Positions 3,001 to 64,000 of a stretch of DNA of 64,000 bases are shown piece by piece. Below the pieces are notes generated by a model. It saw only the letters and a list, made by a program, of their open reading frames with translations, was not told the origin of the DNA and searched no databases. How positions within the stretch are numbered: position 1 is the first letter of the stretch; each line of letters opens with the position of its first letter. Made by a program: the position numbers and the translations under genes. The stretch comes from Nephromyces sp. MM_2019. Lineage: Eukaryota > Apicomplexa > Aconoidasida > Nephromycida. Where the stretch lies: positions 36,022-100,021 of the forward strand of contig JADHZB010000694.1 in the NCBI GenBank assembly GCA_015657535.1. Direction: 5' to 3'.

Positions 3001-3788
3001 AAAAAATGCGATTAAATTCGCCATCTCATCCCAATATTTACCCCCACAAAAGAAGCCCACAATCCGGCGCAGTGCTTCAGTCTTTTATAGGTATTAAAAA
3101 ATAGAGTCTAATAAGTTTTACCGGCCCATCGAGCCTGTGCCACTATAAATTTCTATGTCAAACTGCAGATACTAAGATGCGCATATAAGTCTACCTATAC
3201 TACTTCCCTTGGAGCATTTGTTGCGTAACCTTACCGCTGTACAGGCGAAAAACCACTGTAAAAAAAACTTTATTACACATGAAGGCGGCTTGGAGTGCAT
3301 GCAGAAAAAAATGTAAAAAAGATTACAAGCATGAGCACACTTCTTAGTCACTAGAAAACTGAGCGAAAAAAAAAAATTGCGATCTGAAAATTGTAATGCG
3401 TATATATTTATAGAGCTTTGAATTAGAGCCGATTGTGCAGCTTGCAAGGCATAGCTTTACAGGTATCCAAATGACAGACCCCTCGCTTGGGCATAGTTTT
3501 GAATAAGTAAAAGATGAATCATTTTCCGTTATTTTATACTAAGTGGCATACATTACTCTCATGAGATATCCAAACTTCAACTAAATTAAAGCCTTGCGAT
3601 CATATTAATACAGCGCCAAAATTTTTAGGTTTAAACTTCAACACAACCGAAAAAAGCTAAATTCATTGGTAACCCTTGCTAATCGCAACTAAAAATATTG
3701 ATATAGACCCCAGATATTCATCTAATTTCTCGCTTATAATCATATCATCTTCACCTGAAATTGGTTCTAAACCTGCTAAAGCATCCAT
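1..3788. other. No supported gene; possible isolated exons
   Basis: I cannot assemble a convincing gene here. Open frames are short and show no recognised family. One minus-strand stretch ends at about 2197 in a good splice-donor consensus (CCAG followed by gtgagt) and could be an exon of an unrecognised gene. Another minus-strand frame, about 2652-2840, starts with a hydrophobic run like a signal peptide, but nothing else supports it. Base composition resembles the neighbouring coding region more than the very AT-rich right end, so an undetected intron-rich gene is possible. Confidence 0.3.
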
Positions 3789-6700: not shown

Positions 6701-9700
6701 CCTAGATCAACAAGGAAGCATGGCTTTCGTAGGATAATAACTAGTGAGTACGTTCAGTTCGTACTTCCTTACCAGAAAAATGCAGGCTCAGTAACGTATG
6801 CTTGAAATAATAAGAGACATCCTGCGATGAGACTGTGGTGCGATAGCTGTAAATAAAAGCGCTTTAAATGCCGCTATTTGTAAGTAAATTTTTGGGGGAA
6901 ATACTTGTTGGTCTAGTTGCGAAATTTTTCGCAGAATGGAAGGTTCCGCCAATATTTCGTGCATTCCCTCGGTAAGGTCATCGAAATCACATAGAAGTGT
7001 TCCTTCTGCTGTCTCTAGCAAAGGACTGACTATTAGACAGAGGCAGTGCGAGAGATGCTCACTATCAGGACGCTTCATTGCATCGCGATCGTTCGCTTCT
7101 ATGAACAATTCAAATCACGCCGTTATAGTCCCACCTACTTAGCTAATTACGAAAGCAGCAACTTTACCAGGCGATGGTTGACTGGAGCTTCGAGCCCGGA
7201 AGATCTCACTACGAACAGCACTGTTTTAAACAATCCAGTAACGTATACTCATCGATGTATGGTACCTAATGTATTGTAGTGATGCTGCAGTATAAAAGAA
7301 ACAGGTGTCCGCATGTTTCCATTGTAGTGTGATATGTGTTTACCTAATGCCGAATTAATCCTTGAAGCTGTTTCAGATATGGCACTAAGTAACTCTGTGC
7401 CAAAGTGCTTGGAAGTTAACTTCGCACAAGTGGAAACGGTATAAAGGCAGTAAAAAAAAGACTGATTCGGTAACGGTATAGCTTTCTCGAAATTTTCCTG
7501 CAAAAGCGAAGACTGAGAAAATTTAATTACAAAAGTAAAAGTTATTTATACCTTGGCCTGTTGCACGTGTAATAGTATCAAAGTTTGCAATGTTGGTATA
7601 GAATAAAAAAGGGAAACGACTTCGGGTATCGTCAAGTCCACGCTTTCTATCGCAATACTGAAGTAAAACCGCTGAAATTTTTGAAACAGTTCTGCTACGT
7701 TCGCCAATAAGATCAAATTATTTTCCATGAAGCTTGAAGCCATGCTGCAGTCACTGGATGTGTCAATCAGTAGCTGCTGAACAATGATCAAGCCATGAAG
7801 GGTATTAATTCTGAAATGATGCTTGTGTACAAAAAAAAGGATAAAGTGCTTAAAGTAATGTAAGTTACATTTCAAGCCACTTTATTTCAAGCTCAAAAAA
7901 ATCTGAACTCCCTAGCTGCTCTAATTTCTGCCGATTCGTATTGAAGGAAGGAATACCTAGGAAAAAAAACAGTGCATATTCAAATTGCCTTCGCAGCTTA
8001 TTGATTCTAGCTTACAAATGCACATCCTTATGGCATGACGTGTCAACTTCTCAATTAAATAAGTGATCCTTTCAAGTGATACAACTAATGCAGGCCCCTT
8101 AGTTCTCTCCGTATTGCTGCAGCTAGAGCTTAAATGCAGAAAAAATGCTTGGAAGTTATCCGCGTCAATTTTTTGATTTATTGCGTTTTCCGTCAACACT
8201 TTAATCACGCCTAGAAGCTGAGATAAGTGCCTGAGCTCCAAATGAGGCTGTAATGACATTGCAAAAAGACGACAATCAACTTAGCTAGCAAAAAGGATTG
8301 AACAGATGGATCTTTTCAGAACCTGTGAAGAGGGAATTAGCAGCTCCAGCATAGTAAGCATGGCCTCTAGATATTCGCTGTCGTGAGTGTCACTGGTAGG
8401 CGCATGACATATTTTTGTGACTTCATCGCATAGAAGCTGTATAATTAGCTCAGTCGCTAAAAAAAAGATTTATGACCAACTAGCAATTTTTATCTCATTT
8501 TTATTGCTCACAGTATAGCGAATGATGGTCAGCGAACGCCGCAGAGCTGAGGAAATTTCTCTGCAGGCAGATTACCGAGGCTATTCGAACTTCCAACGTT
8601 CCCACCCTTATACTTTCAAGCAGCCATTCCACAATGCTAACTTCTTCCAGAAATATCCTGATAGCCTCTTTAGGTTTTGCGTTACAAAGCTGGTTTACTA
8701 TTGATATACTAGCTATATAAGTCTCCTTTTTATGTTGTCTAGAAACAAGCAATGACTGGAGTGCTTCAGCTATATGCAGCAGCGCTTTTTCATTATGAGT
8801 AAGAGACATTAGAAACTCGAAATTAGAGGTGCAAGCGGAGTAAAAAAGGATCATTTCAGATCCCAATACCTTGGAAGAAGTACTTTTCTCAAAAATAATG
8901 GACAGGTGGACTTGATTGTCGCTTAAGACCCGGCTCATCGGCTGAAAATTTTCTTCCACGCTTACTAATTTAGTGAGAATAAACACAAATATAGAAAGAA
9001 CGTCGTGGCTCAATGACAGGAGAGTAGGTATAAAGTCGCCCAGAGCTTGTACGAAATTAGTATCCTAAATGCACAGAAAAGGTTATTTCTTTAGCATGCG
9101 AGTAAATGCTCAATCGTACCGTTTGAAATGTGGAAAGCATTGCATCACTAGTAGTACACAAGTCCTTCGTTAGCTTGTATAGGTACATTACGCTGTTAGG
9201 TTCGGATACTCGTAATTTCATTGTTAAGCAGGCTATTATTGCATCTTTTAAAGCTGATTGCAGCCTCGGGATGGCATTATCCAAGAATATTTCTGTCAAG
9301 GTGACAAAAAGTTGAGTTGCCGCTGCCGCTGTGGCGCTAATGCTTGCGTCATGACTATTGTCCTTCTTTCCCAAATCCAACAGCAAGCTCAGCTAAAGTG
9401 TAGAAAAAATTTCAATTTTTTTTAGAGTGGTAAAAAATATATTGCCAGACTTGTCCGACAGTACCATGTTCGTGAGAAAAGGGGTTTCATCCCAAAAAAA
9501 CAGGCTGATTTTGTAGGAGTTTTCCAATTTGTTCTCTGATCTTATCACTTTGTTAAGTTGCTCCATCAGAGATTTTTTTATGAATGATGGAGTGTTTTCA
9601 ACAAGCATATCGCAATAGCAACCACAGCATAAGGTATGCTCGGATACATCAACAAGTATGGGAGTGTTATGGGTATGGTGCTCACTGGAATGTACTTTCA

Positions 9701-9985
9701 GCGAGGGCGGAAAGTTAATTGGAAGCTTACACACTGTCGTCATTCTGTGGTATGAAATTCGAGGTGCATAAAAAGTTTCTGTGGTATGAAATTCGAGGTG
9801 CATAAAAAGTTTCTGTGGTGCCACAGGTATGGATATATAAATTTTTGTGATAATTAAATTGTAAGTTATTCCAGCGTTGAGTTATGGTGTGGCTCTGTAC
9901 GTACGCTACATTTGGCGATATATGTAGCAGCGGGTATGGACACTTACAAAAGCGCGGTCTCATCGTGTCAAGCGCCTTACTATAT
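3789..9985 (-). CDS. Large alpha-helical (ARM/HEAT-like) protein, many short introns
   Basis: Exons in plus coordinates, each in phase with the next: 9948-~9985, 9465-9733, 9120-9392, 8512-9064, 8323-8456, 8016-8247, 7869-7956, 7552-7810, 7344-7512, 7168-7220, 6905-7072, 6773-6846, 6638-6701, 6530-6583, 6281-6472, 6143-6232, 5707-6083, 5611-5644, 5462-5552, 5252-5397, 4800-5000, 4673-4738, 4395-4607, 4280-4333, 4114-4203, 4005-4044, 3789-3943 (TAA stop). They encode about 1390 residues. The protein is rich in Leu, Ile, Ala and Ser with repeated amphipathic helices (for example ACALIAASLAG, LLTM/LELLIP-type runs), as in armadillo/HEAT solenoids. I do not recognise the family; a large scaffold, transport receptor or nucleoporin-like solenoid are options. 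No signal peptide or catalytic motif is seen. Introns are mostly 48-76 nt, the smallest 39 nt (7513-7551). The 5' end is unresolved; the acceptor at 7073 is weak. Confidence 0.72.
9743..9818. repeat. 34-bp direct repeat, 2.2 copies, next to a splice acceptor
   Basis: The unit starting TTCTGTGGTATGAAATTCG begins at 9743 and again at 9777 with no mismatch that I see, followed by a third start of TTCTGTGG at 9811. On the minus strand each copy ends in ATACCACAG, which is acceptor-like. The array lies within the intron 9734-9947 of the ARM/HEAT-like gene, a few bases upstream of the acceptor used at 9734. Confidence 0.85.
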
Positions 9986-42600: not shown

Positions 42601-45434
42601 TAAAAACCAACGCTAGGCAGAAAAAGAGCACCGCTAACACACAGGATACCCAAAGCAATCTGGCATTATACCTAATCCAATCTGCATCTTCTCAAGTAAA
42701 ATTACACAAAGGTATATATCCAACAAATATCTTTGAAAAAAACCTCCAAAATTCCTTCGACATAAATTTTCACCCAAAAACCACAAATAAAAGCGATTCA
42801 AAGCCTCAAAAAACCCTTACAAAGTCACTTCAATACCACAACACTACTCCCACCTTCATACCTCCTACTATCCCTCATAAACCGGCAAAACTCACGCATA
42901 GACTGACAAATTACAAAACAAAAATCAAAAATTTTATAATCTTATTAAAAAAAAAACCCTCTCAACCATCGCGCTAGATGCATTCCCTAATGAAACCCCC
43001 TTCATCAAAACCACCTACCTACCTACCTACCTTCGATATGGGAATTTTGCAGAAAATCCCAACGATTCACCCAATCAACACTAAGGAGTCCAGAAGACCC
43101 CCCTCGATTTTCGAAGTTATAAAATCCTTCCTCCCCAGCTCCCCCCAGCTTATACACACCAGCAGCCTGAGCAGAGCTATCAACTCCGAAATTTTCGTGA
43201 TCTCTATAGGAAGAAACTCCATGCCGGATGAAAGATTTCGCCCCTCCTGAACCACCACTTGCCACCTTATTGCTACCACCGACATCATAGCCATTAACAC
43301 CCCGCACAGAGCCAAATTCTCCAGCACTCCCACCCCGATCTTCACCAGTTAAAACTCCTCCACCTGCAACAACCAAGGTTGGAGATAAATCAAACGCTCC
43401 CCCCATCACGGGACAAATTACCGGGGAAGAGGGAGCAAAGGAGGGAGAAGTTGAAGATACATCAAAATCGCTTATAACCCCCAGACGCTTCGCTCGAATA
43501 GTCTCGAGCTTATAAACAATCTGAAAGAGCATATCAGGATGGATTGCCAGCATGTTAGGATACTGATGAATCGCTGGCTCAAAGATATTCTGGTAACAAA
43601 GAAGCTCCTTATGATTCTTACACTGTAAGATTTCCCCCCAATGAAAGCGGAAGCTGTTTGTTGCTAATATGAAAGAGGTGCCAAAATTAGCGTAAATTGA
43701 GGAGCAAAGATCGTAAGTATCTCGCAGAGCAAGTAGCAAACGCTTGATTACTGAAGAAATTATAAACTTTCCACCAGCTGGAGGATGAGGAGGAGAAGTT
43801 CTACTCCCTCCTGCCTGTGGATATGGTGGATCCTTACAGTTACTAAGATGATCTGCAGAGAAAGGAGGAGCACCCACTCCAGTAGTACCCGAAATGATAT
43901 TATCATTAAGGAGTCGGACAGTGGAAGCTGCTGCTTCGTTAACCACACATGCACTACCATTTGGGAGTTTGGAAGCGGTGTTATACTTAAAAGGAGGGGA
44001 AGCTGTGTGTGTGTCGTCGGGGGGAACCGAAGAAATTCGCACTTCCTCCGTATCAGTTTGGCTGTCTAATTGGCTGGTAAGTTCCGGAGAAACTACCGTG
44101 TGCGAGTTCGAAGCCTCATTTGTGGGGTCGATTTGAAGTTTTTGAGTAGTAACCGCTGTAGGCTCGCTGTGTGATGTGAAGGTGTATTCTACAAAAGACG
44201 GTGCACCGAATGCGTTTAGTCTTTCCTCATGCTCGGTAGTAGCAGCTTCAGAATCTTGTAGGGGGGGCGGCAGGTTGGCATCCGTGTGCGATTCCTGCAC
44301 GGGAAATTCTTTCACTAGGGAAAACTGACAATGAAAGTCTTTTTGCAAATGAGCCGCGTTGTTAGATTGATCTTGTCCGGTAGATGAGGCAAACAAAATC
44401 ATCCCACTCTCCGTGACAGCTAAATCGGAATCGGCCTTCAGCTTTACAAGTGTGTCATTTTCTGCTAGTGAAATCCCAGTAGAAGTGGCAGCATTCTCAG
44501 CATCAGACGATGCAGGAGGGAGAGAGGATTCAAACTTCAAACGGCAAAAATCATTCTCGTTCATTGACAGCACAAGAGAATCGGTGCAAGAAGTTATATC
44601 AGACTCATCGCAGGCTTCCAGCATAGGTTTTTCATCACACACAGGCACCTGGTGGCTATCTTTGGGAATGTCTCCAGGAGCAAGTGCAGGGACTGACTCT
44701 TCCCAGACACACGCAGCATCCCCCCCATCAGAGATGGAGCCTAGGTTATCACAACTCCCGCAATCGTTTTGGCTCTTCAAAAAAGGCCTATCAATATCAG
44801 TATAACTACTATGCAGAGCATCTTCTGATATCGGCTCACTGCTCCCCTCACCTTCAGATAATCCACGATTATTCAAGACTGGGACATTGCTCGGATTAGT
44901 CACGCTTGTACCATCACTAATCGGCTCCTGCGAATGTCGTCGAGTATCCCCATTCTTATGCGGCAAGTAATTCGCAAAAGAGGCAGTCTCTGAAAGAGTA
45001 GAAGCAGACGAATTTCCTCCAGAAAAAACGCCCATCTGGAGCCCATTGCTCAACACTTTTCCTGTAGGCTTCACAGACATTACTCCACCTGCCTCCACCT
45101 TCCCACTTCCAAGAGAAGACGACGACCAGAAACCATTGATAGACGAGCCTAAGCGAGGAGAGAGACTTCGATCGACTTCTCTATCGTCACTATTCACCGA
45201 GGTATCATACTTTCTAGGTACAAGGTAGGGGCTGACCGGGAAATTCATTAATTTTTGCTTGAGATGAAAATCTTCTTCGTTACTTGCTCCCATATTAAGA
45301 TGCATTGAAGGGCTTCTAATATGCATCTCTTCTTCCGATTTCATATTCAACATATTAGAAGCTAAAAAAACCTCATCACACGTTCTAGTCTTCATTCCTC
45401 CTGGAAAAATTGTGTTTCTTGAAAAGAATATCAT
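39684..45434 (-). CDS. 1240-residue low-complexity protein, candidate ApiAP2-type regulator
   Basis: Four exons whose lengths sum to exactly 1241 codons with the stop: 43031-45434, 42002-42229, 41097-41391, 39684-40479. I use the ATG at 45434; the next Met is 14 codons in. Residues 1-550 are Ser/Thr/Glu/Asn-rich and probably disordered. Residues about 560-650 form a compact helical domain (KRLLLALRDTYDLC, NIFEPAIHQYPNMLAIHP, QIVYKLETIRAKR) that recalls the ACDC domain accompanying ApiAP2 proteins. A basic stretch, WRRRKKRSRG, is in exon 2. Exon 4 has VHIEWDFMKCSFVVRL followed, after a Gly-rich insert, by KYFRPMYSDALGVIEALDVL, which has the three-strand-plus-helix pattern of an AP2 domain. The C-terminus is Gly/Asp/Glu-rich. 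The gene model is firm; both domain calls are tentative. A nuclear DNA-binding role is inferred only. Confidence 0.8.
41464..41548. repeat. Palindrome-containing repeat GTGTATATACACTCAAAC
   Basis: Two exact copies of GTGTATATACACTCAAAC at 41464 and 41494, and a shortened third (CGTATACACTCAAACCC) near 41532. Each contains the perfect palindrome GTGTATATACAC or its shortened form. They lie in the intron 41392-42001 of the candidate ApiAP2 gene. Confidence 0.8.
42317..42482. repeat. 82-bp tandem repeat, two diverged copies
   Basis: Copies start at about 42317 and 42399. Shared blocks are CTTGTGTGC, ATCGTGTG, GATGATTTAAGTGT and ATCGCATGCTTGTGTGTG. The array is rich in alternating purine-pyrimidine. 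It lies in the first intron (42230-43030) of the candidate ApiAP2 gene. Confidence 0.75.
43012..43033 (-). repeat. Tandem GTAG microsatellite at a 5' splice site
   Basis: On the minus strand the first exon of the candidate ApiAP2 gene ends ...GAAG and continues GTAGGTAGGTAGGTAGGTGG. The repeat gives several overlapping GTAGGT donors four bases apart. The first is required by the reading frame of exon 2. Confidence 0.85.
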
Positions 45435-48400
45435 ACGTATCAGCAATAAAACGTTAGAATTAGCATTCGCTAGTTTTATTTACAGCTTTTTTTGGTATAT
45501 TAAGCAGTAATAGTAGGAGAGCAATCTTCTATAGCGCCACTGTGCGTGTGCGTGTGCGTGTGCACGCGCTCTCTTATAAAGTCGTACCAAATTCTTGTCT
45601 AAAGCAGCTATGGTAGGAGAGCAGCGGTATTAACAGAAATAACGGAACCACCGCAGACTCTACCTACATGATGATAGTATTGATAAATCCGCTACTTTTT
45701 CTTCTCTTACTAGTAGTTGGCAATGCGCACTAACTTCAAACAATGTGTTTGTATACTTCAAAATACCTCTAAGATCTTTCTTTCTCATAATCAGGAGATA
45801 TTCTATATACTTGTCAATTAAAAGGTCTCTACTTTAAGTAGTAAACACAAAATTAGCCGAATCACCAACTACGAGCTCATAACTGAGCCCTCAATAAAAT
45901 CGCTTCAAACAAGCTGCAGAGGGAGGTAAGCTAAATATCAAAAAATAAAAAAACTTCAGAAGGCACTTTCCAAGCAATTTTTAATATTGAAGGAGTTATA
46001 CTCATAATAAAACCTGTCATCTTTAAAGGGAGCATCAGCTATAGCACTCACAGGCTGCTGAGCACACTGGCGAGATCAAGTCAGAGAATGTTTCTATAAG
46101 TCCCCCAGCGATATTTTCCCCATCAAAACAATCGCATCGCGCATGGAGGCCGTGGCCTCCATCATTTACTCGCTGCTCAATCCAGGGCACGTGAATTCCT
46201 TCTTATTACGCTCATTATTCGTCGCGTAAATACAACGGGGGATTCAACGTCACTACGTGAGCTTCATTGTTCTTTGAAAGAACAAGATCCTATCAAAATA
46301 CATAAAATAAGTAAGCTAATGGAATAAGAGGGGTATATAACAATACTAAAGCAGCTGGTTGATGTGCTGTTTACCAGGGTTGTACTACAGCAATAAACTT
46401 TCGCTAAAAATCAAACTCTAGCAGCTGGTAAAATTACAATCTCTGAAGAAAAGCTTTCCAATATGTGATGGGAGGCAACTTTTCACAGATGAGACACAGC
46501 CGCTACAGCCTTTGATAGAATGGCACCTTACATGAGGCCCTGAAGATTTCACACAAAAAATGAAAGCAAGAATCAATTAACACTCAAATAGCAGGGAAAT
46601 GATTAGCAAGAGGGAATAAAAATCTATAGCAGAAAACCTTTTGACCAAAATTTAATGCAAATCTTCAGTCTACGCAGAACGGTAGAAGTCGCTAAGATGA
46701 GCTTTTTAAAACATTACTTTTAAGCCTAAAGCTGCTCCTTTGTATTCAGATGTAATAGATGCTTACCACACACAAGGCCCTAAAATGGAGGTGACTCACT
46801 ATCTTCCTTCTTATGCCAGGATGTAGTTGGAACATATCCATATTCCTGCATCTTGCTTCTGCAATACATTCGAAATGAACGTGCACACTCTTTATCTCTA
46901 TATGCTTCCTTACATTTTAATCTCAAGAATACTAATGCACCTTAAGAATGCCTTGCAGAGAATAACCACAAAGAAAGACCCTTACCGTAAAAAAACAAGC
47001 CAAGCCCTTGTGCAGTTCGGTCATGTAAAAGCAGCAGAAGGGCAAAATTGGCTATTATAGACCCCTGCAGCGCACAGGAACCTAAGTAAAACTAACACAC
47101 TCTTCTTCATTAGCTGAAAAATCAGGAAAAATGGGATGAACATACAGTAGATAAGGGGGTACCTTAATTTCTACATAAAACCTCCAATGTTTCTCTAAAA
47201 TGGAAAGAATGCAAACATGGACTTATAAGATCAATAATCTAAAACACAAGGACGAATAGGAAAATTTTGCAATTCACGCACAAAGCAGAGGAACTACTAA
47301 ACTTAAAAAATAAGGTTGTGAGCACGTATGACACCGTCAGGTAAAAAAGGCTTAGTCGCTTACACGCATATGCATGCTGCCCTGGCAAAAATCAAAGCGA
47401 TCACCTAGCAATCAAGTAATCTCCTAGCTTAAAACACGGAAAACACTATAAAAATAAATACCACACATTTCCCCCACTCTTGTGTGTGTAGCTTTCTGAC
47501 ATACAAGAAAATGCGCATATTGCATATATCGACGTCTCATACTCTAGAGAAATTTTGAAAATGTAGATGACATGACAGTTTAAACCTAAATAAGAATCGT
47601 AAAGCAGCTACCTACTTCGCTGATAAACTAAGCCTTTTCCCACTAAAAGTTCAACTGAGCAACCCCTACTTGAAAAGCATAGTTACAGGCGTAGTCGCCA
47701 CAATATTCAAACTTCCAATCTCTTGAACCATGGTAAAAAACACTAAAAAAAAGCTTCAAGTCCTACCTCATTCAGCATAGCTTCTATAATCATCCGTCAA
47801 TTTCCTAATCTCCCATACAACTATGCTTTCCCTACCAAAGCAAGTCTGCAAAAGTTTATCCAATCCCCAAAGAACGACAAGGAACAAGAGCAACACAGTT
47901 GAACGACAAAAACCTCCCAAAAGCAAACAAAATCATGCTACAGTCAGCACTATATCAGGTACTTAAGCATGGTAAGCCACCATCTCAAATAAACCATCAT
48001 ATAATCAAACGTACGCATAAATTTGAGGAAAATGTGTGGCGCCAACGCTTCCCAGTAGCAATAAAGGTGAGGCACATCACATCCATGCAGTGTACGTACA
48101 CCCTTGCCATATTCTACTGCACTGCAATGCACGCTTGAGTACGAAATAAAAAGAAATAAACACACATTTGCAATTAAGCTCTGCATAAAAAGCAGCAAAT
48201 AAAACTACATTTACAACCTAACTCCGCATTCAATAACGCTGTAAATAAATGCTACAGAAGCGATACATGTTGAAATCTAGTAACGCGACATTGCAAAATG
48301 GGAAAATATCAAATTGCCAGCGGCAATGTCATCCCCGGTAAAACCTTGAATCGCTCAGCATGCAAACATGAGTCTTTTAGTAGCACTTGGAATAGCAATG

Positions 48401-53527: not shown

Positions 53528-56500
53528 ATGGAGGAAGCAGCCCGTTTCCGACGCTATGGGTCATCCCTATCAGATACAGAGTACACGAAGGCGGATTCTA
53601 GGGAACGAACGGCAGCAGAATTGGAAGCTGAAGAAGACGAGGATAACCAGGAATATAAAAACCCCCTACAAGTGCGTAAATCAAGAGCTTTTTCGCGCAG
53701 GACTTTGACAAAAATATCTAAAATAAATGGTTAGTTGGTTTTTCCCTTTTATGCGGGCTATTTCTCAGCTTTTTGAAGGCAATTTAAAAAAGAAGTTTAT
53801 AATATATACACTGATATATTATACCTTGAGATCATAAGCCAGCACCTGCATAGCTTTTACACTAGAAAAAAATTATGCCAAGCCTTATGCAAATTCAACT
53901 TTTAATGAAATGGGTGCTTGAGAAATTTTTTTCGCAATATTCATCAGATACATATTTTTTTTTTATCACAAAGGACTACTAATATTTTTCCTTCAATACA
54001 TAATGAGTATATTATGCCCAAAGATAACTCAACCTTTGGGTTTTTGGGGCTCTGCTAATATATACTTCGTATAAAAAAGTGGTGTAAATTACCGTAGAAT
54101 ATCCTTTGATCAGTTCATAATTGTTTTGAAATCACTCTGCTAATTTTAAATCCTTTTTTTTGTTGAGTTTTAAATGAATAGAAAATTAAAGAATTGAAAA
54201 AGCCACTTTTACGGTTTATGCTAATAGAGGCGTCGGAGGCTCTAAAGCTAGGAGACATGACTGCTAGATACAAGCTAAACAGGGCCGCTAAAAAAAACCA
54301 AAAATCCGAAAATCAGCAGACTAGAGTATGTGGCTTTTCAAATGTGAAAAATTTGTAGCAGTTTTTTCTATGAAAAAGCTTATCAATAGATGGTGCAATT
54401 GATTTTTTTTTTATTTTATCATAGTTATTCGCTGGGAACATTCTGAAGATTGCCTTTTTTTTTTTAATTTCCCGTAATCTTAGAGTAAGATCACGAGAAA
54501 AGAAAGAAAACCATAAAGCTAAAGCAACGGATTAATTTAGTTATTCTGAACAACATGCAAAAACATTACGATTATGATAGTTCAAATTTTAGCAAGCTAA
54601 AAATTGATTGAAAATAACTGAAAATACCCAATCTTTTTTTTGATACCAGTGTTTTATAAAAAAATTTAATTGGAATAATTTTTGTGGAATTTGGAGGGCT
54701 TGCTCACTCTTCCTCAATTTTTCAGTTGTGTTAAGGTTATTATTTGCAGTGTTAAAATAGCCTATTATCTTGAAAAAACTGATAAAAATATATTTGCACT
54801 GTTTAATTTTTTATACTTAAAAAAAATATTTTTATTTTTTAATCCCACCTTAATTGTTTTTATTGCATTGAGGTGCGTTTGATTAAAAATTTGTACAGTG
54901 AGTGAGCTTATGTTTGGCAATTAATGTGATTTAAAAAAAATTATTTTCAGGCTTCACTAATCCAGCTAGTAGGTCAAATAAGGCCCAGTGGCAGAAAAAG
55001 AAATCCTATAACTTTGTTTGACAAAAAAAAGAATCTGTACAATGAGGCAAAGGAAGAGCCTATTTGGAACACTAGGAAATTCGTCATAAATCCGGTTGAT
55101 AAATCGGAAATAGATAGATTTCCAAAAAATGTAACTAGAACAAGCGAATATACGGTGAGGCTCTCAAACAATTTTTTTATTGGGCCATAATAAGTATTTG
55201 AGCAAGACACCGAAATTTATTTAATATCTTATGAACAATTTTATTTAATCCCTTTTTGTCGGTTTTTAATAATTTCAAACAAAAAATAACTTTATTGGTC
55301 AAAATTTTATAGTATGTGTGTGTGTGCTTGTGTGTGGATTTCCGTGAAATTTTACCTGCTAATTGCGTATAACAAAAAAGCATTTTTGCGGGTCTTTTTT
55401 TTCGATTTCACTTTCAACCTTTAGGGTTGCATTGAGGGTAAATATACTCGCACTAAAATACTTGATTACCCTTTTTTTAGTTTGCCAATTTCTGGGTAAA
55501 GAACATTCTAAAACAGTTGAACAGGAAATTTTACTTATGGCTGGCAGCTATGGCAATAATTCAAGCTATTCCAGATTTGAATATTAATAGGAATAGCTCA
55601 TATTCCAGCCTTTTTCAGTTTTTTGCAGGTAAATTTGGTAAAAACTGAAGAGAAATTCAAAGAAAAGGACTCAAAATTATAAAAAAAGTTTTATCAAATA
55701 TTTTGCTGAAAAAAATATTTTAATTAGTAAATTACTTGATTAAAGAGCAAAAAAATTTGAAAAGCATCCAAAGAAACAAAAAGCAGAGAAAAAGACTAAA
55801 AAGAAATCAATTCAATGTTAAAATTAATAGAATTTTATACATTTGTTGTTTTTAGTCGTTATAGTGTGTGGAGTAAAAAATTTAATCGAGGATTTTCAAC
55901 ACAGAAAAGAAGATGATCTTATTAATTATCGCTGTTGTCACATAATTGATGGCAGAAAACCCCAAATATGTGCAAAATATTGGAAAGATATTGGAGTGAG
56001 TTATTTTTTAAAACGCAAAAAAAAAATTGAAAAGCAACTAAAAAATTCACACTAAATATTGAATAAGGAAAATCCTAATTTAGCATCACTAAAATCTTTA
56101 AAGAGCTGGAAATATATGCTGAAATGAAAACATATTTAATTGATCAACTTATAAAATTTTGTTTTCCAAATTTAAAATCTTCAAACTCAAAAAATACTCT
56201 TGTAATTTACGTTTATAAACTAAAAAAGGCTCTTCAGTAATTTAAAACAATTTTCTTTGGGGCATAAATTTGAATATTTGTAATTGAGTGTTAGTAGAAT
56301 TTTAGATATTGAGCGAGTCGCTTTCTAAGCAAATGAAATTTATTTTTGCTAATTTCGTACAAAAATATTGAAAAATTATCTAGCAAAAAATGAAATTAAA
56401 TTCATTAATTAAATAGGTTTTATATATTTAAAAAAGACCTTATATTTTCGTTTAAAAACGCTATTCAGCTGATGGAAATTTTTTAAATAATTAAATTAGG

Positions 56501-59500
56501 CAGATTTATTTTAAGTATTTAATTTGAAGGAGAAATTTGATTTCAACTCGGAATATCATGCTTTTCTACATGGACAGACTGAGTGAATAATTAAAAGAAT
56601 GTTTAGAAATATTGAAATTAAAAAAAAAATTAGTGTTGTGCCTTCACTAGGTTGGACAAATTTTATATGTTTGTGCTGGAGAGGAGTTTCCAGCGGATTC
56701 CATCTTGGTAGGAAGCTCAAACTCTGATGGAACGGCTTATGCTGATACTTCTAAAATAAATGGAATTACTTATCTTACGACGAAGCATTCTGTCAAGGAA
56801 ACAAAAAGTACGTAATTTAAAAAACTCTGAAATTATGGTTGAAGATAATGTGGGTTTTTTGAAGAGTTAATTTTTACAAAAATTGCTTTAACTTTAACAA
56901 AAAAACCGAAAACTCTGCTTGCTATAAAAACAAAAATTATTTTAAAAAACATTTCATGTATAGACAAAATGAAGGCCCAACCTAGTGCAAATTTTTCCTT
57001 TTTTTTGGTAAAAATCTTGGGTAAACAGCAATTTTATCCTTAAAAAATATTGCAAAAATTCCATGTAATTAAAAAAAATATTAAATTGCGTTTAATTAAA
57101 AAGTAATCAGAAAACTTTTTATCCAACAAAATATTAAAAAAATCTTTAAAAAATGTAAAATTCACAAAAATTCTGAAAAATAGCAAATTAGCAGTCTAAG
57201 CGTCACAAAAACACCTCTGTATTTAGCAACACAAGCTACAGAATAATAATTTAGTGTTATAAGCCTGGGTATGACTCAATATCCAAGATTTTGTTTTTAA
57301 TTTACGTTGAAAATTTTGCAAGAAATTCTATCTCATTCCTCTTAGTATCAAAGGTTTTTAGAAATTTTCCTCAACTAGAAATATTTTTGCCGCCCAAAAA
57401 ATTCAATTTTTTTGTATTTTAAAAAAAGAAAATGCAAAGAGAAAAAAAAAATTTTAGAGCTTTTAAGCAGGAAATTGAAAATCAAACCTTTTTTTAAATT
57501 TGTATAGGTGAAGTCAATTTTACTTCAATATCTGCCATAAGAGGAAGAATAACTTGTAGGCAACCGGATGCCCAATTGGAAACTTTTGAAGGAAATTTTA
57601 AGCTTGATGCGTATCCTAGAGCTTCTGGGCTGACTTTTAAAAACTTTATTCACAAGGGTAGGTTTTAGAAAGCTCATAAAAAGTTTTTTTAGAATTTGAA
57701 TTGAACTTCACGAATTGAATAGTTAAAATATTTTTTATTGCAAATTAGAAGCTTAAAAATTCCAATTAAAAAAAATTTAATTTTTGTGAAGCTTTCCGGG
57801 ATATATTTAAAATTATCATTTTTATGCTAAAAAAATCAAAGCTCTGGAGAAGAGAAAATATTTTATTACTATTTCATCAGTATGATTGAAAAATTGAATA
57901 CAAAAGACTGTAGATGCTTAGATTCGCCTTTAAAAATAAGAGCGTTATTTAGTCTGCTGGTTTTGATATATTTTTGCAGTGAAGTGTTTGCTAATAAGCT
58001 GCTGTAAAGCTGAGAGTTCTGAGGTTTAAATTTTGAGGAAATTCAGTTTTTGAAGAAAATTTTTTGCAATTTTTTGCAATTTTTTCATCGTGTTTTGAAG
58101 AGAGTTAATGCATATAAAATCAAAGACTTTTAGTGGCTTCATATTAAATAGGCACCATACTGAGGAACACTAATTGGGTGTATGCCATTGTTGTTTATGC
58201 TGGAGGCGAAACGAAAATAGCTCAGGCAGAAAAAGTCTGGAAAAACACCAAGATTAGCAGCACAGAGAAAGGCTTAAACTTTACTCTTTCGATTCTTTTG
58301 ACTATAACGCTAATTTACTCTTTGGTACGAAAAAATTTAAACACAAGCATTTAAAGGGTAGAATAAATATTGTGTGTCTTTGTGTGTCTTTGTGTGTGTC
58401 TTTGTGTTTGTGTCTTTGTGTTTGTGTCTTTGTGTTTGTGTCTTTGTGTTTGTGTCTTTGTGTTTGTGTCTTTGTGTGTGTCTTTGTGTGTGTGTGTCTT
58501 TGTGTGTGTTTGTGTGTGTTTGTGTGTGTCTTTGTGTGTCTTTGTGTGTGTCTTTGTGTGTCTTTGTGTGTGTTTGTGTGTGTCTTTGTGTGTCTTTGTG
58601 TGTGTGTTTGTGTCTTTGTGTGTGTGTGTCTTTGTGTGTGTGTTTGTGTCTTTGTCTTTGTGTCTTTGTGTTTGTGTGTCTTTGTGTGTGTGTTTGTGTC
58701 TTTGTGTCTTTGTGTCTTTGTGTCTTTGTGTCTTTGTGTGTGTGTGTCTTTGTGTGTGTGTGTCTTTGTGTGTGTGTATGAGTAAGTTTGCAAAGGATTA
58801 GTAAAAATTAAAGGCTTTTTGTGGCTGTGGTGAGCAGTATATATCTTCAGTGTGAGGCAAATCCATTTTTTTATTCTTGGCATAAAATGGCTAGTTTTTG
58901 TTTTCATCATAGCAAATGAAGCTATAAATAGATATATATGATTTTCATTTAAAAAAAGCAACTATAGATGCAGGTGGCTATATTTATACTTTATTTTTAG
59001 TGTCTTGAGAAATTTGCTTAATAAACGTATTTTTCAGGGGCTAAAGCAGAGTTTTTTTTCAAACTTTTTTTTTGCTTTTGTAATAAAATATTTGGTGAAT
59101 TTGAAAGCGTGAGAGCAAGTTTTTATGTAAAATAGTACGCATTTGTGATAAGTTGGAATTTTTGTTATTCAGGTTTCCATAATTTTGTGGAGTATTTGGA
59201 CCACTTCAGAGGATAAAAACAGTGTATTTTGGTTGCTTGATAGCAATTGGAATGCTAGTGGTACTGGAAGAAAAAGATTAATTTTTTTAGAGTTTCTTCA
59301 AAAAATTAAAAAAAAAAAATAATAAAGAGACACACCAGCAAAATAGAATATTTAATTTCACACACTAAAATTAAAGTGTTCATCAATTTTACACAGAAAA
59401 AAAAAGCTTCTAATCTCCAAACTATTTGATTTGCTATTTTAGGAGGACTTATAACTGTTGGATTGAGTTTTTTTGTTGCTTATGGCTCTCTACTTCCAGC

Positions 59501-62500
59501 AACAATTTATCTAGTAACTGATGTGTTTCATATAATGCAATATATATATCTAAGTAAGTGATTATATATTTTTTTTTTTTTGTGAAAAATTTGGTACACT
59601 GGGCCAAAAATGCCATGATTGAACAGAAGTAACATTAAAAAACAATGTGCTAAAAATAAATTTAATTTTTAGTCATTTTGTTGCTTAAAGTTTGCCTTTA
59701 AAATAAAAAAAGTATAAATGCAGAAAATTAATTTTTATGTTAAATATTTTGAAGATTAAAACAATTATTTACGCTTACAAAAAAGATACAAAAATTGGCT
59801 TTAAAAAGTGGGTTTTTTAGCATTTAATTTTTGAGAAAAATTTTAAATTAAAAAAGGTTATTATAGTTTAATTTCATGATAAAAATCCGATTTTTGAAAT
59901 ATGAAAACATCATTTACTTGAGGATCACACAGCGAATCAAAAAGAACTAAAAGCAGCAGTTTAGTCTTAAAGATTTTTAAGTTGAAAAGCTTGTTAAAAC
60001 CTATTTTTTAAAGCTAATACCTAGGCTTAACGCGGTTTTTTTTTTTTTATTTTATTGAGAATAATTTTATGTGCTGAAATAAGAAAAAAAGGCTGATCTT
60101 TATTTCGAATAATATACTAGTTGATTAAATATATAAATAGGAAAAAATAGGGAATTTGAAAAAAAAATTTCACTTTGAAAAATTGGTGTGTTAAGGCATT
60201 CGTTAAAAGAGGCTTAAATATTGGCGTGTTTGCCAAGTTAACAGCTTTTTTTGTATGTTTATTTCTGGATTAGGGGGAAAAAAATTTATTTTTTTGTCTT
60301 CAAGTTGTTGGTGAATAGAGCAATCAAGATTTTAAGAAAAAAAAAAAAAAATATATAGACACAGAAATAATTTAAAAGTATATTATAAATGTTATATCTT
60401 CATGCTTTTAAAAGCTTCAGATCTAAGCAAAATTGAAATTTTTCTTTGAGATGTTCTCATATGGACTTGTTTACGTAGTGGAGGTGTAATAGCATCTCTG
60501 TATTGTTGAGTAAAAAAATCACTCAAAAAGCAGATTTGCTTCATACCTTTTTTCCTTGTGGTTTTAGAGATATATGTGGTGCTATTTTTTTTTTTTTGCA
60601 TTTACTCTAAAATTTTAAAGCGTTCAAAATAAAGAGCTTTAAATGAGAAGTTATCTGTAAAAATATATGTTTTTATCTTTTTTCAAAATATTAATGTTTT
60701 TATGAGTAAAAATTTCAAAAAAGACGATTTTATACAAATATATTATGAAATAAAATGAATTAAAAAACTTTTTTAAAAACTGAAATTATGCAAATAATGA
60801 AGATAAAATTAGAATTAAAAAATAAAAAAACTATTAAAGTGCCAAGCAAAGGGATTTTTACACGAATTTTAAAAGAAATATATTTACCTCTGCAAATAAT
60901 ATATTTTATAAAATAAATTTGATATCCCTTAATACTTCAAAGGCTACTATTTAAATATAAAAATAATTTATTTGTTTTTAGAACAAAATTTAAGCATGGC
61001 AAAACAAACAACAACAGATTATCTGGTTCCTTTTAATAAAAATATGAGTTTGAACGACTCAATAGGAGAAGTGGATTATATTTTTATGGATAAAACCGGG
61101 ACACTCACAAAAAATTTAATGAAATTTACATGTTGCTCTATTAATGGAAGGCTCTACGGAGGAAGAAAGCGATGGACTACAAAAGTCTCTCAAATGAGTA
61201 GTCTAAACATGATGGTATAAAAAAATTTAAGAGAAATAAATTTTTTTTTAATTTTTATTTTGTTAATTTGGCATTTTAATTAGGAAAGTTTGCAAGGAAA
61301 TTGCAGTAGAGTGTTTTATAATTAAGTCAAGCTGCTAGAGTTAAGCGAAAGATCCTTGAAGAGGGGGTTAAAAAGAGATTTTCATGCAAAAAATGAGACC
61401 CTCTTTTGAATTTTTTTTTTTTAAAGAATCGGCTATTTATTAAGCATTCCCAAAGCAATTTTACTGGCAAAAAAAGTGGATGCTTTTAAACGTTTTTAAA
61501 CCTTTTTAATACGCGTTTTAAGACTCTTTAATTTTAGTTTTTACATGCTTTATTGATTTTGTTTTTATAGACTGTCAAAAAATACAAATAAATCCTTAAA
61601 TACTGCAAAAAAAAAAACCCATCTTTACAAAAGCATTTCAAAAGGTTGATACTATATTAAATCAAGATTGCATATTTAATGTTAACTGGCTAACTAAAAT
61701 TTTTAACAAAAGAGCTACTGGAATAAAAAGAGGTTTTAGCATAAAATGATAGTTTTTGCCGTTTTCTTTTTGTTTTTGAAAGTCAAGTTATAATGATAAT
61801 ATTTTTATTTAGTTTGTTGAAAAACTTTATGCTATTTTCAATCTGTTTTTTCTGTTTGTTTTCACCTGTTTAAATGCTAATTCCATATATAATAAGAAAT
61901 TTTAAAACTTTAAAAAACATTTGTTTTTTCTGTTTGTTTTCACCTGTTTAAATGCTAATTCCATATATAATAAGAAATTTTAAAACTTTAAAAAACATTT
62001 GTTTTTTCCGTTTGTTTTTACCTGTTTAAATGCTAATTCCATATATAATAAGAAATTTTAAAACTTTAAAAAACATTTGTTTTTTCTCAGAATCTAAATG
62101 CCAGTAGCATTCTTGAGGATAACTTAACTTTTTCGCAGGGGCTATCTCATTCATATCTTAATCGAGGTATAAATTAAAAGATATGAAGCTTGTTTTGTAA
62201 GTTATACCATTCAAAAGAATGTCTGCATCAAAAATTCTTTATTTTTTTATAAAGAAAAAGTAGTTTAAAATTTCAAATCGTATGAAGATGATTTTTTTTT
62301 TTGATAAAAAACCCCCTTTTTTTCAGGTCTTTCGAATTATGTCAAACAAGGTTTGGAAGCTGAGTCAACAATAAAAGAAAACAAGTCTCTGTTTAGTTTT
62401 CGAGATTCCAGAGGACGCAAGTTTTCTCTTACCAGAGAAGCTCACAAATTTATAACCTCACAGACACATTCTGCAATAAAACGCTTTCCTGAGGAAAATT

Positions 62501-62574
62501 CAATATTTGGAAAATTGCCATTAGGTAGTTTTAGTTGGTTATATTGTAAGACTAATCTAAAACCTCTTGATTAT

Positions 62575-62606
<32 letters not shown>

Positions 62607-64000
62607 GAGAAAATTTGGGGTTGTAATGAGAGAATTTGAGTTTAATAAAAGGAAAATCAAAACGCCTATTTCAACTTGAGTGACGAAGGATTTTTGAAGA
62701 GCTTAAAAAATTGGATATTTTAACGATAATTTCTGATATTTTCTGGGCTTTTTATGTGCTTATTGAGGAAATTTAAAGAAATGTGATGACAGCAAAGAAT
62801 TGGCTTTCTTATTTTCTGTAATTAAATAAATATTAATTAAGAAGAAAACAAATTTGAAGGCCCTTTAAAATAAAATTTTGCCTTTATTTTTTCGCAGATT
62901 TTTTAGAGAGCAGATGTATATCTGATGAAGATATTCGGTCTATAGAATCCTCAAAGTATTTTCCTGCTGATGATTTAATGCTACCTATGGAGGCATCCCG
63001 GGAAACCACTTTGGTTTTGGATGACTTTGAGCAAATTGATTTGCTAAGTTTTGTTCCTAAGAAAGAAAAATCTATTTCTGAAGGTATTGAGCAAAATCAC
63101 TTAGTTTATTTAGCAGAAGTGCAATTAATTGAATATTTTTAATGTAAATGATAAGTAAAAAATTATTAAATAGATGATGAAAAAACTCAGTGTATTTTAG
63201 AGGTTTTTTGCTGCTAATTAAACATTTTTTAAATGAGAAAAAAAGATTATAATTCACACATAATATTCACTGCTTTTTAAACAATTTTAAATAAAGAAAA
63301 GTAACAATTTATAAAAATATGCCTATATATATATATTATTGCTTAGACTCAGCTTTGGGCTCAAGGGATTTTTCTAGAAAAAGCAAAAAAAAAGTAACCA
63401 TATCTGGTAAGTCTCTAACTAGCTGCAAAAAAATAAATTTAATATTTTAGCCTTTTCTTCTATGTTTTAAAGCCAAAAAAAATAATGAAATCTAGCAAAT
63501 ACAGTTTAATTTAGGTGTTTTTGCCTAGAGTATCATATGTAAATAGCATGCTTCTATAATGTTTTTCTTCCAAATGTTTTGCATTTTCATGCCTGAAATT
63601 GACTTTCTTTTTAATCTTCAAAACAACATGAGGCACACTGTTTTTCTCAGCCTGGCCTACTACAAAAAGCAGCCTGCTTTGCAAAAATTGATTTATTTTA
63701 TCTTCAAAAAAAAAGCATCAACTTTACAGTTTAATCTGATTTTTTTCTCTTAATTTTTTCGAAATATTCAACACATTTTTTTTATGCACACGATTTATCG
63801 TGCTAACAACAAAACTTCAACTGCGCAAAATTGCCTTTAATAATTACGAAATGCATTTCAAAGTTTCTTTACTTTAAGAGTCTTTTTATATTTAAACTAA
63901 AAAACGCTTTGCTGCGGATAATTTAAACCTTCCAAGCAATCTGAAAGATTTATTAAAAAACCAAACGTTTTTCGTTTCTATTTCTCCTGTTTTCTCTCTC
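53528..64000 (+). CDS. P4-type ATPase (phospholipid flippase-like), 3' end beyond window
   Basis: Fourteen exons: 53528-53729, 54970-55154 (or from 54951), 55481-55628, 55856-55995, 56651-56807, 57508-57657, 58152-58324, 59173-59260, 59443-59553, 60982-61214, 62091-62166, 62327-62524, 62898-63083, 63347-63406; then a donor at 63407 and intron to the window edge. An acidic N-terminal extension precedes the P4 signature [12 protein letters not shown], first membrane segment [20 protein letters not shown], actuator-domain blocks ([53 protein letters not shown]), [20 protein letters not shown], membrane segment 4 with LLPATIYL, and the phosphorylation motif DKTGTLT (Asp at 61089). The usual DGET is NGIT. 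After DKTGTLT comes a long Ser/Glu-rich insert (from 62091). The remaining N-domain, P-domain and C-terminal membrane segments are outside. The family moves phospholipids between membrane leaflets; in alveolates related domains are fused to guanylyl cyclases. Confidence 0.9.
58370..58790. repeat. TGTGTCTTTG composite minisatellite
   Basis: About 420 bases made only of (TG)n and CTTTG blocks, open in all three plus frames and one minus frame because it lacks stop codons. It sits in the flippase-like intron 58325-59172. The long Cys/Val/Phe or Thr/His/Lys open frames over it are artefacts of composition. Confidence 0.95.
61844..62090. repeat. 78-bp tandem repeat, three copies plus a partial, ending at a splice acceptor
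   Basis: Units start at 61844, 61922 and 62000 with only one or two substitutions, and a partial fourth starts at 62078. Each begins TGTTTTTTCTG; the partial fourth copy reads TGTTTTTTCTCAG and forms the polypyrimidine tract and acceptor of the exon at 62091. Confidence 0.92.
62577..62606. repeat. (TG)n microsatellite
   Basis: An uninterrupted run of about 15 TG units, in the flippase-like intron 62525-62897, 50 bases after the donor. Confidence 0.95.

What the first reader, a model, noticed from the sequence alone, without database searches (positions are those of the whole stretch)
56651..61214. Flippase-like ATPase with NGIT in place of DGET but intact DKTGTLT
The exon at 56651-56807 reads ADTSKINGITYL where P4-ATPases have the xxxANLDGETNLK block. 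The Glu of DGET is needed to dephosphorylate the aspartyl intermediate, so NGIT predicts a protein that may be phosphorylated but not cycle normally. The phosphorylation motif at 61089 is intact. In apicomplexans and ciliates, degenerate P4-ATPase domains form the N-terminal half of bifunctional guanylyl cyclases. This gene, with an acidic N-terminal extension and a long insert after DKTGTLT, could be such a fusion. The cyclase part would be to the right of the window.
Basis: partly seen in the sequence, partly recalled or inferred. Interest (0 to 1): 0.75.

Follow-up and report, generated by a model that had tools for sequence, protein, structure and literature searches.

The report
Flippase-cyclase gene lacking dephosphorylation glutamate
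The window ends inside a gene for a membrane protein whose front half looks like a lipid pump that may still be switched on but lacks the part that resets it; it is probably the sensor half of a cGMP-making signalling protein known from malaria-type parasites and ciliates, and the same assembly holds a second gene with the same defect.

Summary
Observation confirmed. A 13-exon, in-phase model (669 aa, 53528-63083 +) runs off the contig, which ends with the window. It matches P4-ATPases (6k7g/ATP8A1 E=4.9e-55; TIGR01652 E=1.6e-86). NGIT (56759-56770) stands where ATP8A1 and DRS2 have DGET; ATT differs from Glu codons at all three bases. DKTGTLT (61089) is intact; PISL reads PATI, QQ reads QA.

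The cyclase half cannot be read here. The assembly has one spliced GC2-type cyclase gene, cut by the left end of contig C286, with a matching tetranucleotide profile and the Cys/Asp pair printed for Toxoplasma GC2. By sequence alone its nearest solved structures are adenylyl cyclases. GC1 and the rest of the ATPase were not found.

New: contig C508, similar in profile, carries a second P4-like A-domain without the Glu (DGVL), sharing two intron positions in phase. C286 could belong to either gene.

Best reading: one of two flippase-cyclase paralogs (compare Plasmodium GC-alpha/beta) whose flippase part is a non-cycling, possibly phospho-latched regulator.

The parts
53528..53671 (+). exon 1: start codon, N-terminal extension with acidic patch (donor uncertain: 53671 in phase, 53729 out of phase)
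54951..55154 (+). exon 2: P4 N-terminal block (FPKNVTRTSEYT)
55481..55628 (+). exon 3: M1; QQIPD of ATP8A1 reads QAIPD
55856..55995 (+). exon 4: M2 and start of A-domain (NLIEDFQHRKEDDLIN)
56651..56807 (+). exon 5: A-domain with DTSKINGITYLT in place of ETSNLDGETNLK; NGIT codons 56759-56770
57508..57657 (+). exon 6: A-domain, from SEVNFTS to NFIHKG; 150 bases, the same length as the C508 exon
58152..58324 (+). exon 7: LRNTNWVYAIVVYAGGETK and start of M3
59173..59260 (+). exon 8: M3 end and loop
59443..59553 (+). exon 9: M4; PISL of P4-ATPases reads PATI
60982..61214 (+). exon 10: P-domain with intact DKTGTLT (Asp codon 61089-61091)
62091..62166 (+). exon 11: insert after DKTGTLT
   Evidence: TIGR01652 match ends at residue 523
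62327..62524 (+). exon 12: insert
62898..63083 (+). exon 13: insert; the model is open at the contig end (64000)

Best explanation
This is the N-terminal flippase-like half of an alveolate-type P4-ATPase/guanylyl cyclase fusion, one of two such paralogs in its genome. Shown: P4-type M1-M4, A-domain and phosphorylation motif; loss of the A-domain Glu; altered PISL and QQ lipid-path motifs; a second gene (C508) that also lacks the Glu; a GC2-type cyclase gene (C286) with a matching sequence signature. Inferred: the cyclase half follows in the unassembled gap; it makes cGMP; the Asp can still be phosphorylated; without the Glu the aspartyl phosphate is hydrolysed very slowly or not at all. The domain would then be a one-shot or latched conformational regulator (lipid or ATP sensor, or CDC50-bound scaffold) of the cyclase, not a working flippase.
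For: In-phase 13-exon P4 model; 6k7g (ATP8A1; that name is recalled, the table says phospholipid-transporting ATPase) E=4.9e-55; TIGR01652 E=1.6e-86 ending at residue 523, followed by 146 residues without a match, i.e. a long insert after DKTGTLT. By residue numbers in PMC6592433 and PMC7858053 PfGC-alpha has D756 and KGSD at S1739, so a long insert occurs in that family. C286: linker, hydrophobic segments, then GC2 with KLCTIGDAY and RYDIWG, i.e. the Cys/Asp pair by alignment to adenylyl cyclases, and FADICGF/IGDAY for the two Asp that PMC6592433 places in Toxoplasma GC2. C286 0-6 kb correlates 0.80 and 0.82 with the two 5-kb halves of the window gene region, and C286 0-10 kb correlates 0.85 with 53-64 kb. 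With that same reference, 40 random 6-kb pieces of the window's first 53 kb give mean 0.67 (0.54-0.77), 40 C297 pieces mean 0.44 (max 0.58), 40 C214 pieces mean 0.46 (max 0.49). ATP8A2 E198Q in DGET blocks PS-induced dephosphorylation (PMC4937031, passage). PfGC-alpha D756N gave no parasites in 3 transfections against 2 of 2 for the silent control (PMC7858053, section 10 read), so in that relative phosphorylation matters.
Against: No cyclase sequence on this contig; GC1, the N domain, GDGxND and TM5-10 of this gene were not found. C286 may belong to the C508 paralog. The C286 GC2 is nearest by sequence to adenylyl cyclases (types 8, 5, 9; 6e-37 to 1.5e-27) and less so to guanylyl cyclases (best 9.5e-19); guanylyl specificity would rest on the unseen GC1. 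Pfam finds nothing in the C286 linker and hydrophobic part. The k-mer match is inflated because both regions are AT-rich and intron-heavy; C297 pieces reach 0.60 with one half of the gene region. Whether the N domain binds ATP is unknown. CDC50 matches lie on 5 contigs; of the two fetched, C170 does not share the signature (r 0.22) and C130 is ambiguous (0.42-0.46, against 0.42-0.73 for 3-kb own-contig pieces).
Confidence: 0.72

Rival explanations
1. A stand-alone degenerate P4-ATPase (pseudo-flippase) with no cyclase; C286 is the end of the C508 gene.
For: No cyclase on the contig. One GC2 found for two P4-like genes. In protein identity the visible A-domain is no closer to C508 (0.336) than to ATP8A1 or DRS2 (0.354 each).
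Against: Long insert after DKTGTLT as in apicomplexan cyclase fusions. Asn for Asp in the motif as in PfGC-alpha ETSLLNGET. Two intron positions shared in phase with C508. AT-rich, intron-heavy contig ends can explain the missing parts.
Confidence: 0.15
2. A flippase-cyclase whose pump still cycles: another acidic residue or a different geometry hydrolyses the phosphate, so NGIT is tolerated.
For: LRNT, PAD and DKTGTLT are intact and the frame is open over 13 exons, so the domain seems to be under constraint.
Against: The conservative Gln change at this Glu already blocks dephosphorylation in ATP8A2 (PMC4937031, passage). PISL and QQ are altered at the same time. The C508 paralog lacks the Glu too.
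Confidence: 0.08
3. Artefact: mis-assembly or an unannotated alternative exon supplies DGET in vivo.
For: The assembly is fragmentary and looks mixed. No transcript was available.
Against: Three base changes separate ATT from GAA. No other [DN]GE[TS] peptide in the + frames of 53-64 kb. Splice sites and phases fit. An independent locus shows the same loss.
Confidence: 0.05

Closest known systems
Plasmodium GC-alpha (PF3D7_1138400)
   Same: P4-ATPase-like N-terminus, Asn in the DGET motif (ETSLLNGET), DKTGT present, long insert between DKTGT and KGSD (PMC6592433, PMC7858053)
   Different: Keeps the catalytic Glu, PISI and QN; the window has NGIT, PATI, QA
Plasmodium GC-beta (PF3D7_1360500)
   Same: [quoted passage not shown] a second paralog beside GC-alpha (PMC7145802, passages)
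   Different: The window gene keeps DKTGTLT. GC-beta's own residues at the DGET and DKTGT sites were not seen in any call
Toxoplasma TgATPaseP-GC / TgGC
   Same: P4-like N-terminus and two cyclase domains; ETSKL before the motif against DTSKI here; GC2 Cys/Asp pair matches C286
   Different: TgGC has DGET and is a single gene
Human ATP8A1 / yeast Drs2 (P4A flippases)
   Same: Best matches among solved structures; M1-M4, A and P domains
   Different: They carry DGET, PISL and QQ (alignments); no such insert after DKTGTLT (recalled)

Membership tests
P4-ATPase (flippase) family | P4-type sequence similarity over M1-M4, A and P domains | tested here: met
   TIGR01652 291 bits is below the whole-protein cut-off of 431, as expected for 414 of 1,058 positions
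P4-ATPase (flippase) family | DKTGT phosphorylation motif | tested here: met
   61089, exon 10
P4-ATPase (flippase) family | DGET dephosphorylation motif | tested here: not met
   NGIT; so not filed as a working flippase
P4-ATPase (flippase) family | PISL in M4 | tested here: not met
   PATI
P4-ATPase (flippase) family | N domain KGAD, P domain TGDN and GDGxND, TM5-10 | not testable with these tools
   beyond the contig end; no piece assignable to this gene found elsewhere
Alveolate flippase-guanylyl cyclase | P4-like N-terminus followed by two cyclase domains in one reading frame | tested here: inconclusive
   N-terminus present; GC2 only on another contig, C286; GC1 not found
Alveolate flippase-guanylyl cyclase | GC2 holds both metal Asp and a Cys/Asp purine pair | tested here: met
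   C286: FADICGF, KLCTIGDAY, RYDIWG against PMC6592433 (passages). Met for C286, whose link to the window gene is inferred
Alveolate flippase-guanylyl cyclase | GC1 with Glu/Ala pair giving GTP specificity | tested here: inconclusive
   no GC1 found; short diverged exons could be missed
Alveolate flippase-guanylyl cyclase | CDC50 partner encoded in the genome | tested here: inconclusive
   11 exon matches on 5 contigs; C170 differs in signature, C130 ambiguous, C568, C1061 and C245 not fetched

The most novel reading that the evidence does not exclude
An organism in which both flippase-cyclase paralogs have lost the dephosphorylating Glu while at least one keeps a phosphorylatable Asp: a P-type ATPase turned into a single-turnover aspartyl-phosphate latch that sets the state of a guanylyl cyclase, separating 'phosphorylated' from 'pumping' by natural evolution.
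Probability: 0.25. Interest if true: 0.75.

Novelty: new variant of a known kind. Interest (0 to 1): 0.5.

Why it matters
What the flippase domain of apicomplexan guanylyl cyclases does is open: PMC9426505 (passages) calls it 'of unknown function' and saw no change in bulk uptake of fluorescent PC without CDC50B; PMC7858053 (passages) asks whether flipping or sensing is needed. A relative that keeps the phosphorylation Asp but has lost the dephosphorylation Glu and the PISL lipid motif would be natural evidence that cycling and flipping are dispensable and that the domain senses or holds a conformation. The value is limited until the fusion is shown on one molecule.

Tried and rejected
Rightward extension: the contig ends with the window, and a DNA search with the last 3.1 kb found only itself. 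C214 cyclase: one open frame, with an arginine-repeat, S4-like stretch in an upstream ORF (my reading; Pfam gave no channel match) and a different k-mer profile; rejected as this gene's cyclase. C297: an ordinary P4-ATPase gene (DGES, DKTGTLT, GDGANDVPM) with a different profile; rejected as the continuation. Protein search with the spliced model: 2 hits at E <= 1e-10 among 6183 candidates, both with GET (P0001 NGET, P0002 DGET); candidates are limited to 0.55-1.75 of the query length, so full-length fusions could not appear. Identity does not place C508 nearer to the window gene than to ATP8A1; intron positions do, but I set the C508 exon edges by eye. The GC2 protein scan did not recover even the C214 cyclase, so it would also miss a diverged GC1. 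The 18S search did not complete. A nephromycid-type apicomplexan is only a guess, from recall and a similar contig count (1,176 contigs >5 kb in PMC6320678, passages; here 1,127). No structure prediction was run: the protein is spliced and incomplete.
Full report
Where it is. The window is bases 36022-100021 of contig C375 (100,021 bases) of an unnamed assembly of 48.28 Mb in 1,127 contigs. The gene starts at about 53.5 kb, where G+C falls from about 0.41 to 0.26-0.32 in 4-kb steps, and runs off the end of both window and contig.

The gene. Thirteen exons with GT-AG borders join in phase into 669 residues. Only the donor of exon 1 is uncertain. Pfam finds PhoLip_ATPase_N (E 1.9e-9) and, below its cut-off, E1-E2_ATPase (E 5.8e-5). 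TIGR01652 (phospholipid-translocating ATPase) matches residues 105-523 at E 1.6e-86; its 291 bits are below the family cut-off of 431, as expected for a fragment covering 414 of 1,058 positions. Among solved structures the best match is 6k7g (ATP8A1, name recalled), E 4.9e-55, then Drs2 and other flippases; 20 distinct sequences match at 1e-10 or better, and all are phospholipid-transporting ATPases by name. Hydropathy peaks are consistent with M1-M4.

The motif. NGIT aligns to DGET. The following NLK also changes (YLT). The Ile codon is ATT. DKTGTLT is intact. PISL reads PATI and QQ reads QA. In ATP8A2 the E198Q change in DGET blocks PS-driven dephosphorylation (PMC4937031, passages). PfGC-alpha reads ETSLLNGET and TgGC ETSKLDGET, and PfGC-beta lacks most signature residues (PMC6592433, passages). 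So Asn for Asp is known in this protein class; loss of the Glu beside an intact DKTGTLT is what is unusual here.

A cyclase in the same assembly. A Guanylate_cyc (PF00211) scan gave 3 matches on 2 contigs, C286 and C214. C286 (16,987 bases) carries a + strand gene whose start is cut off. Five exons (705-1107, 1837-2004, 2510-2658, 3072 to about 3254, 3435-3535, edges by eye) join in phase into a linker and hydrophobic segments in which Pfam finds nothing; GC2 exons follow between 6.4 and 10.0 kb. The joined GC2 scores E 1.4e-30 to PF00211 and has the two Asp and the Cys/Asp pair that PMC6592433 gives for Toxoplasma GC2. Its best solved relatives are adenylyl cyclases 8, 5 and 9, with guanylyl cyclases lower; PMC5746546 (passages) describes the alveolate enzymes as having mammalian adenylyl-cyclase topology with C1 and C2 motifs swapped, so this does not decide the substrate. 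A protein scan with this GC2 found only C286 (4 of 4 matches).

Signature. C286 0-6 kb correlates 0.80 and 0.82 in tetranucleotides with the two halves of the window gene region, and the C297 and C214 pieces 0.16-0.60. C286 0-10 kb correlates 0.85 with 53-64 kb. With that reference, random 6-kb pieces of the window's first 53 kb give mean 0.67 (0.54-0.77), C297 mean 0.44 (max 0.58) and C214 mean 0.46 (max 0.49), 40 draws each. Shared AT-rich intron style inflates this, so it shows 'same kind of genome', not 'same gene'.

A second gene with the same loss. A TIGR01652 scan (45 matches, 41 candidates) pointed to C508:22433-22630 (E 3.1e-6). C508 (24,951 bases; the last 4,451 fetched) correlates 0.85 with the window gene (4.5-kb own-contig pieces: mean 0.64, 0.43-0.76). 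Its exons contain IPADLIML, then YFETSTVDGVLFEKPKYPVEDT, SIRGRILC, NFICKG and SRVKKVPYIDGVVVY: DGVL for DGET, and VKKV where LRNT stands. It is P4-like (6k7g E 7.9e-15; TIGR01652 E 1.4e-19), though Pfam finds nothing at E 1. The introns after exons 5 and 6 fall at the same residues and phase in both genes, and exon 6 is 150 bases in both (C508 edges by eye). C297 has no break at the second of these places (one open frame over LLRGAMIKNTEW). The C508 gene also runs off its contig. In plain identity it is no closer to the window gene (0.336) than the window gene is to ATP8A1 (0.354). Two paralogs recall Plasmodium GC-alpha and GC-beta (PMC7145802, passages).

What is missing. No GC1, N domain, GDGxND or TM5-10 assignable to this gene was found. 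The scans work exon by exon and score only the best candidates, so they are lower bounds. The fusion is therefore inferred, and C286 could end either gene.

Organism. Alveolin repeats (22 matches; one bacterial control genome also rings) and AMA-1 (2 weak matches on one contig, best E 8.4e-5, no control rings) suggest apicomplexan-type DNA in the assembly. Their loci correlate 0.48-0.52 with the window gene, which at this length decides nothing. Repeated copies of some genes and different k-mer profiles suggest a mixture, though paralogs could also explain the copies. The organism was not established.

Mechanism. Shown: the sequence facts above. Known from relatives: PfGC-alpha D756N gave no parasites in three transfections, against two of two for the silent control (PMC7858053 section 10); the TgGC complex with CDC50.1 and UGO integrates phosphatidic acid and other cues (PMC9600588, passages). 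Inferred: phosphorylation without efficient dephosphorylation makes the domain a latch, or, if the unseen N domain is dead too, a scaffold and lipid sensor. Either way a normal flippase cycle is unlikely.

Print check. Searches (open-licence PMC papers only; listings seen) showed no paper that I recognised, from titles and abstract starts, as describing a flippase-cyclase with DKTGT kept and the DGET Glu lost. PfGC-beta's exact residues were not seen, so precedence there cannot be excluded.

Noticed in passing
G000:C508:22439-24951 (L036): Second P4-like gene with DGVL for DGET and VKKV where LRNT stands, cut by the contig end; sequence signature like the window's.
   Followed up: partly
L011 (C214:6319-7920 and 9005-9865, -): Single-frame nucleotide cyclase with an S4-like arginine-repeat ORF upstream (by eye); may be the channel-adenylyl cyclase fusion of alveolates; k-mer profile unlike the window's.
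   Followed up: partly
G000 contigs C494, C587, C876, C1006: Four contigs each hold 3-4 alveolin (IMCp) exon matches, and two P-type ATPase classes appear on four contigs each: the assembly may be a mixture of related species or strains.
   Followed up: no
58371-58777: Long TGTGTCTTTGTG-type tandem array (18.7 or 28.4 copies by period 22 or 14) inside intron 7.
   Followed up: no
61844-62087: Three near-identical 78-base copies (98% matches) at the end of intron 10, three bases before exon 11; C286 at 2.7-3.0 kb has a comparable direct repeat before an exon (by eye).
   Followed up: no
43026-45479 (-): 818-codon serine-rich open frame with no Pfam match.
   Followed up: no
about 52-56 kb, and C286 at about 6-8 kb: Change between about 0.40 and 0.27 G+C; both pieces of the putative gene begin or end near such a change.
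   Followed up: no
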